Source: a virus. Taken from it: a stretch of 64,000 nt of DNA. Position 1 is the stretch's first letter, and each line of letters opens with the position of its first letter. The position numbers and the translations under genes are program-made. The notes beneath the pieces are model-generated. The model saw only the letters and a list, made by a program, of their open reading frames with translations. It made no database searches and was not told where the DNA came from. Shown here in pieces: positions 9,805 to 50,679 of this stretch. The stretch lies in IMG/VR virus record IMGVR_UViG_3300021170_000010, positions 1 to 64,000 of that record, one strand, 5' to 3'.

Positions 9805-9999
9805 ATGTACCGCGACCGGAAAGCTGAAGCGCTCGATGCCGCGTTCCTCAAAGCGGAGCAGGACGAATCGGAGCGCGATCAAACCGGAGCCGTCCGCATC
9901 CTTATAGCCGACGGCAAACTCGGTCCGGATGCTACGGAACGGGAGCGGCGCTTCGTCGCTATACGCGAAGCCGTAGCGCGAAGGAAGGGTAAGCCTTGA
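9805..9999 (+). CDS. Small helical charged protein
   Basis: A 64-residue protein (MYRDRKAEALDAAFLKAEQ) with an AAGGA ribosome site. It overlaps the QueD start (TTGA). No domain recognised. Confidence 0.45.
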   Translation: MYRDRKAEALDAAFLKAEQDESERDQTGAVRILIADGKLGPDATERERRFVAIREAVARRKGKP

Positions 10000-10484
10000 A
10001 GCAGCAGCCGGATACGTTCTGCCCGATTTGCAAGAGTACGCTAGTCCATAAAGGAATGGATTGCCCGAATCCTCGGTGTCCGAACCACGACGCGCCGAAG
10101 CGCAAAAGAACCGGAGAACCCAAGATGAGAATATTTATAGAAGACAGTTTCGACGCGGCTCACTTCCTACCGAACGTTCCGGACGGCCACAAGTGCCGTT
10201 CTCTCCACGGCCATACGTACCGAATCCGCTTGGAGTTCGGCGGCGTCCTGAATTCTACGAGCGGATGGATTATCGACTACGCGGACGTAAAGCAGTACTG
10301 GAACTTTATCAAGAAGGACCTTGACCATAAATGCCTCAACGACGTTCCCGGTCTTGAGAATCCAACGTGCGAGATAATCGCGCAGTATATCTACGGACGG
10401 CTCGATTATCCTTCCGAGTTGACATCTCTGAAGCGTATCGAGATCCGCGAGACGGAGCACTGCGGCGTCGTGCTGGAGCAGTAG
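9996..10484 (+). CDS. queD: QueD/6-pyruvoyl-tetrahydropterin synthase-like protein with zinc-ribbon N-terminus
   Basis: A 162-residue protein. Residues 44-162 are a complete QueD (6-carboxy-tetrahydropterin synthase) domain with zinc ligands H56, H71 and H73, and catalytic Cys67 in GHKCRSLHGH. The tail has RETEHCG. This enzyme makes the second intermediate of the 7-deazaguanine (preQ0) pathway. Residues 1-43 are an extra module with CPIC and CPNPRC, a zinc-ribbon-like fusion. The start is TTG 9996 in a TTGA overlap; ATG 10125 would give the plain enzyme. It precedes a DpdA-like gene, which points to DNA modification rather than tRNA queuosine. Confidence 0.8.
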   Translation: MKQQPDTFCPICKSTLVHKGMDCPNPRCPNHDAPKRKRTGEPKMRIFIEDSFDAAHFLPNVPDGHKCRSLHGHTYRIRLEFGGVLNSTSGWIIDYADVKQYWNFIKKDLDHKCLNDVPGLENPTCEIIAQYIYGRLDYPSELTSLKRIEIRETEHCGVVLEQ

Positions 10485-11402: not shown

Positions 11403-11472
11403 CTACGGCAGGGGCCTCGGATCGGGTCTAATTCCTATCCCTGGATCTCCCCGCCAGGCCCCCGTAGTTTTT
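11403..11472 (+). terminator. Long structured terminator or small RNA 3' end
   Basis: Outer arms CTACGG..GGGGCCT (11403-11417) and AGGCCCCCGTAG (11456-11467) pair, with a 38-base interior that holds further short pairings (GGATC..GATC). A TTTTT run follows at 11468-11472. It lies in a 130-base gap after the DpdA operon segment. It reads like a rho-independent terminator with an unusually long loop, or a small structured RNA. Confidence 0.55.
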
Positions 11473-11494
11473 GGGGATTCAGGGGAACCAAACG

Positions 11495-11773
11495 ATGAGC
11501 CAAGGCGCTATAGCTGCGTCTGTACAGAAATCTCGGATGATTAACTTCGCGGATGCGATGGCAGATAGTCTTTTGCCGGTCCGTTCCGTAGAAGGAAATT
11601 GGCGTAAGAATGCGCGTCCGTTTATTCTTCGCGGATTAAATAAGGCCGTCGCTTATGAGCGCGAGGAATGCGCTAAAGTCCTCGACGCGCTCGCGGAAAA
11701 GTGGAAGGAATACGGCGGTGAGAAGCCATTCACGGATGCCGCCGCAGAGATTCGCGCGAGAGGAAAGCAATGA
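11495..11773 (+). CDS. Small phage protein (EREECA...IRARG family)
   Basis: A 92-residue protein. The conserved C-terminal plan is AYEREECAKVLDALAEKW followed by AAAEIRARG, a family with many copies in phage early regions and no known role. ATG 11495 has a GGGG ribosome site and is preferred to 11471. It ends in an ATGA overlap. Related to 12609 and 12839. Confidence 0.55.
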   Translation: MSQGAIAASVQKSRMINFADAMADSLLPVRSVEGNWRKNARPFILRGLNKAVAYEREECAKVLDALAEKWKEYGGEKPFTDAAAEIRARGKQ

Positions 11774-12612
11774 ATCTCGCGTACCAAGTTGCTGGAGTTG
11801 ACCTTCGGTCACGTTGTTGCCCGCAACGACTAGTGATAGAGCGCCGACCTCCGTCGGCAGGCATTAGTACTCCAGCAGTTATATCGGATGACCGCGAAGA
11901 CGCTAGAGCAGCCGTAAGCATCATACTGTCTCCTGGGCGGAACGATAGCGACCGTTGCGTACGCCGGTCCCGTGAAATCCGCGCGTTATCCGACCACATA
12001 TCCGGAATACGTATCCAGCCGTCGTGCAGTAGTGGAAGCGTCCCGGATTACTGGCGTGCCTGCGGGATCACCGCCACGCCAGTCCAACTTCTCTATTTCT
12101 CGGTCTCGTCGCGATTGCACTCGCGTCCGCTCCTATTCGAGACCGTGGACCAGCCGCAATGGTTAACTGCGGTGACGGTGGGGCAGAAAATCAGCGGCCC
12201 TGCGGGGATCGTACTAAACCCGGCAACGTACGCGGTACGGCGCGGCGGCAAGTACGGCGATTCCGAAGTGGATTCTTCGGCGCGAGCTGGAGCGCGTCTC
12301 CTCCAGCCATCAGGACACTACGCAAGCGATTCGCCGGGACAGGGAGCCGTCCCCGGCGAACGAATTCGCTATGAGGCTCCCAAGAAAACCCCAACAGACG
12401 TCATAGCCCGTAGTACGGGACAGCGCAGCCGGGAGCGCGCGCAAGCGGATGAAGAAGCGCGGCGGAATCCCGGACAATCTTATGCTGGCGTTCTGCCAGC
12501 TACCAGTTCGACTCGGACAACAAACGAAAAGGAGCCTCCTTCTGAAAGGTTGTGCGCCTGTGCGAATGTTGAAGGCACCGAGTCGATTTACCTTCAGCGG
12601 AGGGCCGCGTGA
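11770..12612 (+). CDS. Doubtful 280-codon reading frame
   Basis: This frame opens in an ATGA overlap with the upstream gene and closes in a GTGA overlap with the downstream gene, which argues that it is translated. Its product has no recognisable domain and an odd composition (many Ser, Arg, Pro). The other two frames also hold protein-like stretches, for example a hydrophobic GGTIATVAYAGPV near 11930 and FLGLVAIALASAP near 12105. Either this is one unusual gene or several small genes broken by base errors, as elsewhere in the window. Confidence 0.35.
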   Translation: MNLAYQVAGVDLRSRCCPQRLVIERRPPSAGISTPAVISDDREDARAAVSIILSPGRNDSDRCVRRSREIRALSDHISGIRIQPSCSSGSVPDYWRACGITATPVQLLYFSVSSRLHSRPLLFETVDQPQWLTAVTVGQKISGPAGIVLNPATYAVRRGGKYGDSEVDSSARAGARLLQPSGHYASDSPGQGAVPGERIRYEAPKKTPTDVIARSTGQRSRERAQADEEARRNPGQSYAGVLPATSSTRTTNEKEPPSERLCACANVEGTESIYLQRRAA

Positions 12613-12842
12613 CTAAAGTCGAAATCCGCTTCTGCGCAACTGCCATCGGGACGGATTATGCGCCGCAAGAAGACCTATCAGCCGTAGTCCAGTCGATAGA
12701 AACTCTTGTAGAGCGCGCGGTCGCGGATGAGCGTGAAGCGTGCGCCAAGACGGCGGAAGCGCGTATTCAAAATGATGACTGTGAAGCCTGCCGCGCGGCT
12801 GCGCTGATCGCTAAGGATATCCGCAATCGAGGTGCCGCGTGA
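12609..12842 (+). CDS. Small phage protein (DEREACA...IRNRG family)
   Basis: A 77-residue protein with ADEREACAKTAEARI and a C-terminal CRAAALIAKDIRNRG. GTG start, coupled at both ends. It is one of a local set of related small genes (11495, 12609, 12839). Role unknown. Confidence 0.55.
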   Translation: MTKVEIRFCATAIGTDYAPQEDLSAVVQSIETLVERAVADEREACAKTAEARIQNDDCEACRAAALIAKDIRNRGAA

Positions 12843-13123
12843 CTCCCGAACAAGTAGCCCGTTTCGCAGCGATTCTTACCGGACGAGTAGATGAACCGCC
12901 AAGTAAGCAGGTACGTAAGCGTCGTAGCACAGTTGAAGCCGCTGTCCTGCGCGAGCGCGAAGAGATCGCTAAGGAAGCAGAGACGGAAGCGAAGCGGCTT
13001 CACGATATAGTGGACGGTGAAGTATTTGAGCATCCGCTTACTCAGCGTCAATTAAAGTTGCTTGCGCAAGCTGATGCGCTTCGGACTTTCGCGTATGCGA
13101 TTCGGAATCGAGGTACCGCGTGA
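12839..13123 (+). CDS. Small helical phage protein, paralogue of upstream gene
   Basis: A 94-residue protein with EREEIAKEAETEAKRL and the shared ending LRTFAYAIRNRG. It starts at GTG in a GTGA overlap. The similar C-terminus to the 12609 product suggests local duplication. Confidence 0.55.
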   Translation: MTPEQVARFAAILTGRVDEPPSKQVRKRRSTVEAAVLREREEIAKEAETEAKRLHDIVDGEVFEHPLTQRQLKLLAQADALRTFAYAIRNRGTA

Positions 13124-14954: not shown

Positions 14955-16001
14955 ATGGTTCAATACCAACTTAAACTCCGTTTAACGAAAGCGCAGAAGA
15001 TGAAGCGAGATGAGTGGTTACCGATTCTCGGCTCCGTCTGGAACTTTGCCGTCCGGAAGATCGAACTGAACGCGCAGAATAAAATCTACTTTGGCGCGCA
15101 TGAGTTCCAGAATCTCCTCGCGGGACACGGAGAACGTATCAGTATCCCGTCCCACGTTCTTCAGGGGGTTCTCTCAACAGCCTTTACTTCATGGAAGCGC
15201 TGCTTCAAAAAGATCGCGCGGAAGCCGCGATTAAAGGGCGCGCGCCGCCCGATGAACTCGATTCCGTTTCCCGATCCGCTGAAGATCGTAGACGGTAAGA
15301 TTCATCTTCTCGGCCTCGGTAAAGTCCGCTTCCATAAGCAGTGGATTCCTGAGGGAAAGATTAAGTGCGGACGGCTCGTTAAGCGCGCGTCCGGAGATTA
15401 TCTCTGCCTATTCATCGACGCTGCGCCGAAAGCTATCGAGCGCGTAGCGGAGAATGCCGTCGGCATCGATCCAGGATTTAAGGATCTCGTAGCGCTGAGT
15501 ACAGGTGAGAAGGTAGCGCATCCGAAGGAGTACCGCGATGCGGAGAAGCGTATCGGCCAAGCGCAGCGCGGCCATAATCGGAAGCTCGCTGCGCGAATTC
15601 AGGAACGCTGCCAGAATCGGCGTAAAGACCGGAATCATAAACTCTCGCGGCGTCTAGTAGCGGAGAACAAGACGATCTGCTTTTTGAAAGACAACCACCG
15701 AGCGGTGGCAAAGAGATTCGGTAAATCCGTGAGTGATAGCGCGCACGGCCAGTTGAGATCGATGCTCGAATACAAGAGCCTTATCGGCGGTAGCGAGTTG
15801 GTCTTTCCTGAGAATAGAAATTCCACGAGGACCTGCTCTACCTGCGGGGCGCTTTCCGGCCCTACTGGCTTGGTGGGACTCAAGGTAAGGGAATGGGATT
15901 GCGGGGCCTGTGGTACTCATCATGACCGCGATATAAACGCGGCTCGTAACGCTCTCATTTCCGGGGTCGGATGGACCCACGAGGTTCACGTTTATGCGTG
16001 A
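14955..16001 (+). CDS. tnpB: TnpB-like RNA-guided nuclease homologue, catalytic Glu replaced
   Basis: A 348-residue IS200/IS605-type OrfB protein. RuvC-I Asp is present (D172 in VGIDPGF), as are the zinc ribbon (C294, C297, C316, C319) and RuvC-III Asp (D326 in HDRDINAA). Where other TnpBs have the RuvC-II Glu (hhxEDL), this one reads CFLKDN, with Lys245 and Asp246. It may therefore be nuclease-dead or use a shifted acid. No tnpA and no clear ends are seen. It is embedded in the operon, with GGAGG eight bases before ATG 14955, so it may be a domesticated phage gene. Confidence 0.8.
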   Translation: MVQYQLKLRLTKAQKMKRDEWLPILGSVWNFAVRKIELNAQNKIYFGAHEFQNLLAGHGERISIPSHVLQGVLSTAFTSWKRCFKKIARKPRLKGARRPMNSIPFPDPLKIVDGKIHLLGLGKVRFHKQWIPEGKIKCGRLVKRASGDYLCLFIDAAPKAIERVAENAVGIDPGFKDLVALSTGEKVAHPKEYRDAEKRIGQAQRGHNRKLAARIQERCQNRRKDRNHKLSRRLVAENKTICFLKDNHRAVAKRFGKSVSDSAHGQLRSMLEYKSLIGGSELVFPENRNSTRTCSTCGALSGPTGLVGLKVREWDCGACGTHHDRDINAARNALISGVGWTHEVHVYA

Positions 16002-16011
16002 AGCCAGAAAT

Positions 16012-16023
16012 CCCCTGAAGGGG
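16012..16023 (+). other. Short hairpin after TnpB overlapping a ribosome site
   Basis: CCCC-TGAA-GGGG lies 10 bases after the TnpB stop, and its right arm is part of the GGGGGAG site of the next gene. It could be the 3' stem of a guide-RNA region, or it could control translation of 16032. Confidence 0.35.
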
Positions 16024-16031
16024 GAGTATCA

Positions 16032-16466
16032 ATGGATCTTGCCAGAGCCTCTCGCTATCGGCTGGAAGAAGCGCAAGGAGGTATCCGCGTGACGCCTCGA
16101 ACCGGAAGGCCGCGCGGCGGTGGAAACAGCCATCTCGGAAGAAAGCGGCGCGCCGAAGCTAAGGCCGCGCCGGTTTCGATCCACGATCAGATCATGGCGC
16201 TCGCGCCGACGAACGACCTGATGCTAGCCGCGTGGATCGGATGCGTCCACTACGCGCTCGGAGAACCGGCCATCGTCGCTCAGTACAGGCTCGCTACTGG
16301 ATCGAACTGGCTCCCGCCGTCTAGTCCTATCGAGCGGATGATCGACGAAGCCACAGGCGCGGAAGGCGCTTTCCTGGTGGAGTTCATCAAGTTTGTAAAC
16401 AAAGAGATTTGGGGTAAAGTAAACGGTCGCGCCTGCAACGGCGACGAGGCAGAGTCTCCGCTCTAA
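16032..16466 (+). CDS. Hypothetical protein with basic N-terminus
   Basis: A 144-residue protein. ATG 16032 follows GGGGGAG at five bases; a GTG at 16089 is less well supported. The N-terminal 50 residues are Arg/Gly-rich (RTGRPRGGGNSHLGRKRR), the rest helical (NDLMLAAWIGCVHYAL, AFLVEFIKFV). Possibly nucleic-acid-binding. Last gene before a new promoter. Confidence 0.5.
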   Translation: MDLARASRYRLEEAQGGIRVTPRTGRPRGGGNSHLGRKRRAEAKAAPVSIHDQIMALAPTNDLMLAAWIGCVHYALGEPAIVAQYRLATGSNWLPPSSPIERMIDEATGAEGAFLVEFIKFVNKEIWGKVNGRACNGDEAESPL

Positions 16467-49352: not shown

Positions 49353-49553
49353 ATGGAAGCGAGTTCGAAGCGCGGCCCGATGCCGCTCGCCTGTCCGTAC
49401 TGCCGCCGTCCGTTCGCTGAAGAGTTCGTGATCTCCCTATTTTCGAGCTGGCGAAGCCTTAAGCGGAAGGTCTTTAGCGGAGGAAGGCTCGGAGGACGTC
49501 ATCCGAAGGGATGCGCGTGCGGGCGCTGCGAGTGGTCGCGCGATGCTACCTAA
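49353..49553 (+). CDS. Zinc-ribbon protein upstream of TnpB
   Basis: A 66-residue protein with ACPYCRRPFAEEF and GCACGRCEW, a four-Cys ribbon, and a basic middle (RSLKRKVFSGGRLGGR). It overlaps the TnpB start by 11 bases, so the two are co-translated. Confidence 0.55.
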   Translation: MEASSKRGPMPLACPYCRRPFAEEFVISLFSSWRSLKRKVFSGGRLGGRHPKGCACGRCEWSRDAT

Positions 49554-50679
49554 AATGATCCGCTCGTTCGAGTTCCGATTAAAGCTAACAAAGGCGCAGT
49601 TTCTGGCTTTCGAAGAAATCCTTCGCGATTCCTGCGAGACGTATAATGCCGCGCTCCAGGAGCGTAGGGATGCGTGGAGGATTTGCCGGAAGAAGATTAC
49701 GCTCTATGATCAGTATAATGAATTAACGGAACTGCGCCAAGATCCGCGCTTCGCGACCATTTCCGCTGAAATTCAGCGTGATCCTTTGCGTCGTATCGAC
49801 CGCGCGTTTAAAGCGTTCTTCCGCCGCTGTAAGCGCGGAGAAAAGCCAGGATATCCGCGCTTTAAATCACGCGATCACTACCATTCCTTCGCGTGGGGTT
49901 CTCCAGTTCTAAATCCCGATTCTATCCGTATTCCGAATCTCGGCTTAGTCCGCTATAAGGCCCACCGCCCGCTAGCCGGGACTCCGAAGCAGATCGTCGT
50001 GAAGCGCGTCGGAAAGAAGTGGATCGCGCGGATAGTCTGCGATCTTGGCCCAGCACCGTCGAAGGTGGCCATCTTAAATGCGGTCGGAATCGACCTCGGA
50101 CTGACGACGTTTGCTACGCTTTCGGACGGTTCCGAAGTACCGAATCCGCGCTTCGTTCAGAAGCACGCGCAGTCCATCGCGAGGGCGCAGAAGAATCTGG
50201 CGCGAAAGAAGCGCGGAAGTAAGAACCGGCTCCGCGCGAAAGAATCCGCGCGGCGAGCGTACCAGCGGATGGCGGACGCGCGGAAGAACTTCACGCATTA
50301 CATATCGAAGGAACTCGTGGCGCGGTACGACCTGATCGCGCACGAAGATTTGAAGATCGCGAATATGGCGCGAGGCCACTTCGCGAAGTCTATTTTAGGA
50401 GCGGCGTGGGGACAACTGCTATTTCAGTTAGCGTACAAGGCTGAGAGCGCCGGACGCTACGTGATAGCCGTTAATCCCCGGAATACGTCCCAGATCTGTT
50501 CACAGTGCGGCGCGCTAGTTCGGAAGAAACTCTCCGAACGTCAGCACGTCTGCGCCTGCGGAGCGGACCTGGGACGCGATCATAATGCCGCGATCAACGT
50601 ATTGAACCTTGGGCTCGGTAGGAGCCTTGCAGCTGCGCAGGCGGCTTCAGAAGGATCAGTAAAATCCGCTACCCGCTAA
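49543..50679 (+). CDS. tnpB: TnpB RNA-guided nuclease (IS605 OrfB type), intact active site
   Basis: A 378-residue TnpB. Full RuvC triad: D184 (VGIDLGLTTF), E268 (LIAHEDLKI) and D346 (LGRDHNAAIN); zinc ribbon C319, C322, C337, C339. It would be guided by an RNA made from its 3' end and cut target DNA, aiding IS survival. No tnpA or recognisable IS ends are seen, so it may be a solo element or a domesticated gene. ATG 49543 overlaps the zinc-ribbon gene; ATG 49555 is an alternative start. Confidence 0.85.
   Translation: MLPKMIRSFEFRLKLTKAQFLAFEEILRDSCETYNAALQERRDAWRICRKKITLYDQYNELTELRQDPRFATISAEIQRDPLRRIDRAFKAFFRRCKRGEKPGYPRFKSRDHYHSFAWGSPVLNPDSIRIPNLGLVRYKAHRPLAGTPKQIVVKRVGKKWIARIVCDLGPAPSKVAILNAVGIDLGLTTFATLSDGSEVPNPRFVQKHAQSIARAQKNLARKKRGSKNRLRAKESARRAYQRMADARKNFTHYISKELVARYDLIAHEDLKIANMARGHFAKSILGAAWGQLLFQLAYKAESAGRYVIAVNPRNTSQICSQCGALVRKKLSERQHVCACGADLGRDHNAAINVLNLGLGRSLAAAQAASEGSVKSATR

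What the first reader, a model, noticed from the sequence alone, without database searches (positions are those of the whole stretch)
14955..16001. TnpB-like protein lacking the canonical RuvC-II glutamate
The RuvC-I and RuvC-III aspartates are intact, but the block that normally reads hhxEDL reads CFLKDN (Lys245-Asp246). If D246 does not replace the Glu, the nuclease is dead and the protein may have become an RNA-guided DNA-binding regulator, as described for TldR proteins. It sits inside the phage operon with no IS ends.
Basis: partly seen in the sequence, partly recalled or inferred. Interest (0 to 1): 0.7.

Follow-up and report, generated by a model that had tools for sequence, protein, structure and literature searches.

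The report
Phage TnpB with a relocated acid
A phage gene resembling the RNA-guided DNA cutter TnpB lacks the usual catalytic glutamate, but so does its whole family, which keeps one other invariant acid, an intact guide RNA and mobile members, so it is more likely a rearranged, working cutter than a dead regulator.

Summary
The ORF is real: a full-length 348-aa TnpB that lacks the RuvC-II glutamate. The loss is not special to this copy: all 58 complete family members examined (relatives 39-75% identical, mostly phage) lack it. Gapless anchoring puts the missing Glu at L244 (Ser in 51 of 58), not K245. D246, two residues on, is one of only three acids invariant in 58/58, with D172 and D326, and replaces the Leu/Val seen in all 12 outgroup TnpBs. 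The closest sister TnpBs also lack the canonical Glu but carry the Fanzor-type alternative Glu; this family has neither. The family consists of IS200/IS605 elements: some carry TnpA_Y1, most identifiable left ends follow TGAAC, and empty sites exist. The omega-RNA scaffold is intact in the window: a covarying stem inside the gene's 3' end, a right-end hairpin ending ..TATCAA, then a guide from 16033. So 'no IS ends' is half wrong: the right end is present; left end and TnpA are gone. Best reading: an immobile, phage-resident RNA-guided TnpB with a rearranged (D-D-D?) site, probably still catalytic. A TldR-like dead regulator is not excluded but not favoured. No guide target was found.

The parts
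14955..16001 (+). tnpB-like gene, 348 aa
   Evidence: AF2; Foldseek
15468..15470 (+). RuvC-I Asp172 (VGIDPGF, DPG motif)
   Evidence: 58/58 conserved
15684..15692 (+). RuvC-II block: L244 (position of the lost Glu), K245, D246 (Glu+2, invariant in the family, Leu/Val in outgroups)
   Evidence: AF2 register
15810..15812 (+). Glu286, eight residues before the first zinc-finger Cys; near but not at the Fanzor-type alternative Glu (would be N287)
   Evidence: PMC10711439
15834..15911 (+). CxxC...CxxC zinc finger (C294, C297, C316, C319), intact
15930..15932 (+). RuvC-III Asp326 (DRDINAA)
   Evidence: 58/58
15964..15978 (+). omega-RNA stem-loop inside the 3' coding end (GGGTC-GGATG-GACCC)
   Evidence: covariation in 44 family members: 99.5% paired, 57 double-change cells, 0/500 shuffles
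16002..16032 (+). transposon right end / 3' end of the omega-RNA scaffold: hairpin CCCC-TGAA-GGGG then GAGTATCAA
   Evidence: covariation of the long form in 11 relatives; own hairpin MFE -9.5, z -1.1
16033..16052 (+). predicted guide TGGATCTTGCCAGAGCCTCT
   Evidence: position after TCAA by analogy with relatives; no target found
16032..16466 (+). downstream phage gene whose ATG uses the last A of the right end; GGGGGAG of the hairpin (16020-16026) is a plausible ribosome-binding site
   Evidence: weak PHROG match to residues 66-133

Best explanation
This is an immobile, phage-resident member of a phage-enriched IS200/IS605 TnpB family whose RuvC-II site has been rearranged. The canonical Glu is lost, and an invariant Asp two residues on (D246) most likely supplies the third metal ligand with D172 and D326. 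The protein should bind the omega-RNA read from its own 3' end and right end and use the sequence from 16033 as guide. It should bind DNA carrying a TGAA-type motif next to that sequence and most likely still cut or nick it. Ancestrally this keeps the transposon by cutting the unoccupied site; in this phage, where the left end and TnpA are gone, it would act as a stand-alone RNA-guided nuclease against a rival or unoccupied allele. Shown: fold, loss of Glu, conservation pattern, intact scaffold, mobility of relatives. Inferred: the catalytic role of D246, cleavage, the motif for this copy, and the target.
For: Only D172, D246 and D326 are acids in 58/58 members; position 246 is Leu/Val in all 12 outgroups. 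The family is one clade, 100/99. TnpA_Y1 abuts or overlaps tnpB in seven loci tested by Pfam, E 7e-34 to 2e-45. TGAAC precedes 15 of 19 left ends found by pattern. Three relatives of Thiobaca have (T/G)TGAA^ATTCAT empty sites where the L088 element is inserted. Omega-RNA stem covariation includes the window's own pairing. W vs L022: dN 0.20, dS about 2 (saturated), so purifying selection. One RII-r5 TnpB cleaves dsDNA and an intact RuvC is needed for omega-RNA processing (PMC10278001).
Against: No coordinates were available, so D246 has not been placed near D172/D326. D246 precedes a helix (starts 248) and could be a helix cap or part of a new polar network, since R226, N227, E192, Q202 and G256 are also family-specific. 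In Cas12m2 an Asp at the RuvC-II Glu position does not bind the second metal (PMC10442227). The window copy has lost its left end and no target was found.
Confidence: 0.58

Rival explanations
1. Nuclease-dead RNA-guided DNA-binding regulator (TldR-like): the protein binds its guide RNA and silences a phage or host promoter without cutting.
For: No canonical Glu and no exact alternative Glu; immobile, in a phage gene array, no TnpA in 102.9 kb; intact guide scaffold.
Against: Glu-less state shared with TnpA-bearing mobile elements and the RuvC-I and RuvC-III Asp kept in 58/58; no shared neighbour gene with the five relatives compared; no target in own genome, viral contigs or phages.
Confidence: 0.2
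2. Catalysis is rescued by a Glu near the zinc finger (E284 in most members, E286 in the window's subgroup), a shifted version of the Fanzor-type alternative Glu, and D246 is structural.
For: 48/58 have E284; the four-member window subgroup has F284 with E286; the sister clade has the alternative Glu at 287. AF2 shows isolated bridges at 245 and 286, so the two segments may be neighbours.
Against: Six further members have no Glu at 284 and only one of these has Glu at 286. Neither position has the defined E-x6-CxxC spacing (PMC10711439).
Confidence: 0.14
3. A decaying transposon remnant without function.
For: Left end and TnpA lost; no target found.
Against: Full-length frame, intact zinc finger, low dN/dS, perfect omega-RNA stem and a right-end hairpin.
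Confidence: 0.08

Closest known systems
RuvC-II-rearranged TnpB clades (RII-r3, RII-r5; PMC10278001, after Altae-Tran 2023)
   Same: TnpB of IS200/IS605 elements with the RuvC-II Glu not in its usual place; one RII-r5 ortholog cleaves dsDNA
   Different: The text of the paper does not give the residues of these clades, so identity with either could not be tested; here the candidate is Asp at Glu+2
Fanzor / pro-Fanzor and D-Phi-G alternative-Glu TnpBs (PMC10711439)
   Same: Canonical Glu lost; DPG motif in RuvC-I as in Fanzors; the sister clade here (L105, L109-L112) has the alternative Glu
   Different: This family has mostly Ser or Asn at the alternative-Glu position and belongs with Y1 (IS200/IS605), not IS607, elements
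TldR nuclease-dead repressors (PMC13418256)
   Same: Phage-resident, RuvC change, guide RNA kept
   Different: The family includes TnpA-bearing mobile elements; three invariant acids kept; no partner gene or promoter target found
ISDra2 / ISFba1 TnpB
   Same: Same fold (TM 0.71-0.81), zinc finger, omega-RNA overlapping the gene end
   Different: Canonical D-E-D triad there
Cas12m2 (HDD site; PMC10442227)
   Same: Non-canonical RuvC triad with Asp in the RuvC-II block
   Different: CRISPR effector that binds without cutting; RuvC-I Asp replaced by His there, kept here

Membership tests
TnpB (IS200/IS605 RNA-guided nuclease family) | TnpB fold and sequence profile | tested here: met
TnpB (IS200/IS605 RNA-guided nuclease family) | omega-RNA scaffold at gene 3' end and right end, guide after TCAA | tested here: met
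TnpB (IS200/IS605 RNA-guided nuclease family) | canonical RuvC-II Glu | tested here: not met
   known rearranged TnpBs also fail this
TnpB (IS200/IS605 RNA-guided nuclease family) | left end with TnpA or mobility, this copy | tested here: not met
   met in relatives
TnpB (IS200/IS605 RNA-guided nuclease family) | guided DNA cleavage | not testable with these tools
   needs a bench assay
Fanzor / alternative-Glu TnpB | E-x6-CxxC alternative Glu | tested here: not met
   N287 in W; Ser or Asn in 53/58; definition in PMC10711439
Fanzor / alternative-Glu TnpB | DPG in RuvC-I | tested here: met
   D172-P-G
TldR | loss of nuclease activity | not testable with these tools
   sequence suggests otherwise: three invariant acids
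TldR | guide matching a promoter or regulatory target | tested here: inconclusive
   none in own genome, viral contigs or phages; remaining hits at chance level; host unknown
TldR | recurrent non-transposon partner gene | tested here: inconclusive
   neighbours of five relatives do not match the window's genes; other relatives not compared
RuvC-II-rearranged TnpB clade (RII-r3 / RII-r5) | same clade and residue pattern as published | not tested
   defining paper (PNAS 2023) not held

The most novel reading that the evidence does not exclude
A third solution to losing the RuvC-II Glu in TnpB: a D-D-D site using Asp at Glu+2, in a phage-enriched clade in which copies such as this one have shed left end and TnpA and serve the phage as stand-alone RNA-guided nucleases against rival or unoccupied alleles.
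Probability: 0.35. Interest if true: 0.62.

Novelty: new variant of a known kind. Interest (0 to 1): 0.42.

Why it matters
Calling TnpBs dead because an aligned Glu is missing would misfile this whole family. If D246 is catalytic, it gives a natural D-D-D RuvC site and a compact (348 aa) guided nuclease whose omega-RNA and candidate TGAA-type motif are already outlined. If it is not, the family would hold mobile elements with a non-cutting TnpB, which the cut-to-persist model of TnpB does not explain. Either outcome is decided by one cleavage assay with two point mutants.

Tried and rejected
Alternative Glu of Fanzor type: sought and not present in the family. E284 as universal replacement: absent in the window subgroup and six others. 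Guide target: own 102.9-kb genome (4-mismatch hits within shuffled range), exact 20-mer in viral contigs (none), TGAAN+14-mer in viral contigs (4 hits, about 2 expected by my own rough estimate, matches end at 14-16 nt), phages and plasmids (nothing convincing). Relatives of the downstream protein in viral contigs: none confirmed. Same guides in other fetched loci: only gene or right-end self-matches and one chance-level hit. Atom distances in the AF2 model: coordinates not provided. Rfam: no hit. Shared neighbourhood with near relatives: none. Two key papers (PNAS 2023 TnpB census; Nature 2024 TldR) are not held.

Full report
WHAT IS THERE. The ORF at 14955-16001 (+) encodes 348 aa. It is a TnpB by Pfam, PHROG 506 at 7e-61 and NCBIfam guided_TnpB. 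AlphaFold2 with 58 family members gives pLDDT 89.7 and pTM 0.80. The best solved match is ISFba1 TnpB, TM 0.81, then ISDra2 TnpB. The record is a 102.9-kb virus contig with primosomal and DnaB-like genes nearby.

THE MISSING GLUTAMATE. The helix and strand before it are gapless from His228, and in canonical TnpBs the catalytic Glu is His+16, which is L244 here; the profile alignment to solved TnpBs gives the same register. A control AF2 model of the window's second, canonical TnpB ends the strand on its Glu and starts the next helix four residues later, the same spacing as 244 to 248 (pTM only 0.58). So L244 holds the Glu position and D246 is Glu+2.

HOW GENERAL IT IS. Scans found 66 viral loci and 13 genome loci. 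In 58 complete, distinct proteins (window included) position 244 is Ser 51, Leu 4, Thr 3; position 245 is Lys, Ala, Arg, Asn, Ser or Asp; position 246 is Asp in 58/58. The only acids invariant in 58/58 are D172, D246 and D326, and all 12 outgroup TnpBs have Leu or Val at 246. The family is one clade (100/99). Its sister, TnpBs of Acinetobacter, Pseudomonas, Azotobacter and Hydrogenophaga plasmids and an Acinetobacter phage, also lacks the canonical Glu (Gly there) but has the alternative Glu (VNESYTTRTC and similar), as defined for Fanzor relatives in PMC10711439. The family has neither. Most members have Glu at 284, the window subgroup at 286; neither is universal. Caveat: one of the two search patterns of each alignment scan lies just after this block and the other just before it, and one peptide of the first scan contained it, so more distant members with other residues could be missed.

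GUIDE RNA. Downstream of the stop, many relatives share GGAATC-hairpin-..TCAA. The long form covaries in 11 sequences (97.7% paired, 14 double-change cells, 0/500 shuffles). Inside the coding 3' end a 5-bp stem with a GGA-type loop is 99.5% paired over 44 sequences with 57 double-change cells; all slid registers fall below 49%. Seven of 51 distinct sequences were left out of that count, most of them because they pair in another register; all 51, with a sixth non-conserved pair included, give 87% against at most 69% in shuffles. The window has GGGTC-GGATG-GACCC at 15964-15978 and a short right-end hairpin at about 16012-16024; the latter alone is not more stable than shuffles (z -1.1), so its identification rests on the conserved frame around it. 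The guide would start at 16033.

MOBILITY. TnpA_Y1 abuts or overlaps the start of tnpB in seven loci tested. A left-end motif follows TGAAC in 15 of 19 loci found by a pattern that I wrote after inspecting some of them. The element L088 in Thiobaca is inserted at the start of an SbcD-like gene, and three related genomes show the unoccupied (T/G)TGAA^ATTCAT. One 126-kb phage holds two copies 80% identical (281/350) with different guides. The window copy lacks a left end, and its virus record has no TnpA; L022, its sister, also lacks a left end. dN 0.20 against saturated dS indicates purifying selection.

MECHANISM. The simplest reading is a working RNA-guided TnpB with a rearranged site, D246 most likely taking the metal-binding role. 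Support from experiment elsewhere: an RII-r5 TnpB cleaves dsDNA and an intact RuvC is needed for omega-RNA processing (PMC10278001). Caution from experiment elsewhere: in Cas12m2 an Asp in the RuvC-II position does not bind the second metal (PMC10442227). A structural role for D246 fits too, as R226, N227, E192, Q202 and G256 are equally family-specific. I could not measure distances.

TLDR. TldRs are nuclease-dead TnpB derivatives that repress through a guide and often gain partner genes (PMC13418256). Here the trait is family-wide and shared with mobile elements, and no target or partner gene was found. The host is unknown, so a host target remains possible.

NOVELTY. RuvC-II rearrangement in TnpB is known. 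An Asp at Glu+2 as the candidate residue, with DPG and neither known Glu, was not described in the papers I could read; the census paper that defines the rearranged clades is not held, so this may coincide with one of them.

Noticed in passing
window 49543-50679: Second TnpB with canonical HEDL and a similar GGCTC-GGTAG-GAGCC stem near its 3' end; about 30% identical to the first.
   Followed up: partly
L029 6224 vs L030 3357: Two phage contigs 99.7% identical over 7 kb differ in the 34 or 24 bases directly after the right end, i.e. exactly the guide, while both flanks are the same: looks like a natural guide swap.
   Followed up: partly
L037 about 4954 (minus strand): A mini-element with left-end start, right-end hairpin and TTCAA but no tnpB between, like a stand-alone guide unit.
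   Followed up: no
L056 5849-6004: A small ribbon-helix-helix gene (PF07878, weak) overlaps the start of tnpB, in the place where TnpA sits in close relatives.
   Followed up: partly
L040, L045, L063, L079, L081 just after tnpB: A subgroup has a different 3' structure (AATCTCG..CGAGAAGTTCA-like) and no left end found; possibly a domesticated guide scaffold.
   Followed up: no
L039 vs L042: Near-identical tnpB, same guide and 6 kb downstream, but TnpA and most of the left end are missing in L042 and the upstream flank differs; both flanks end in TTGAAC.
   Followed up: partly
window 11471-13123: Small ORFs in a row share a VA.ERE(E)CAK-like motif and a C-terminal A..IR.RG motif; look like paralogues.
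   Followed up: no
window 9996-10484: QueD-like 6-pyruvoyl-tetrahydropterin synthase (PHROG 2389), a possible deazaguanine pathway gene in the phage.
   Followed up: no
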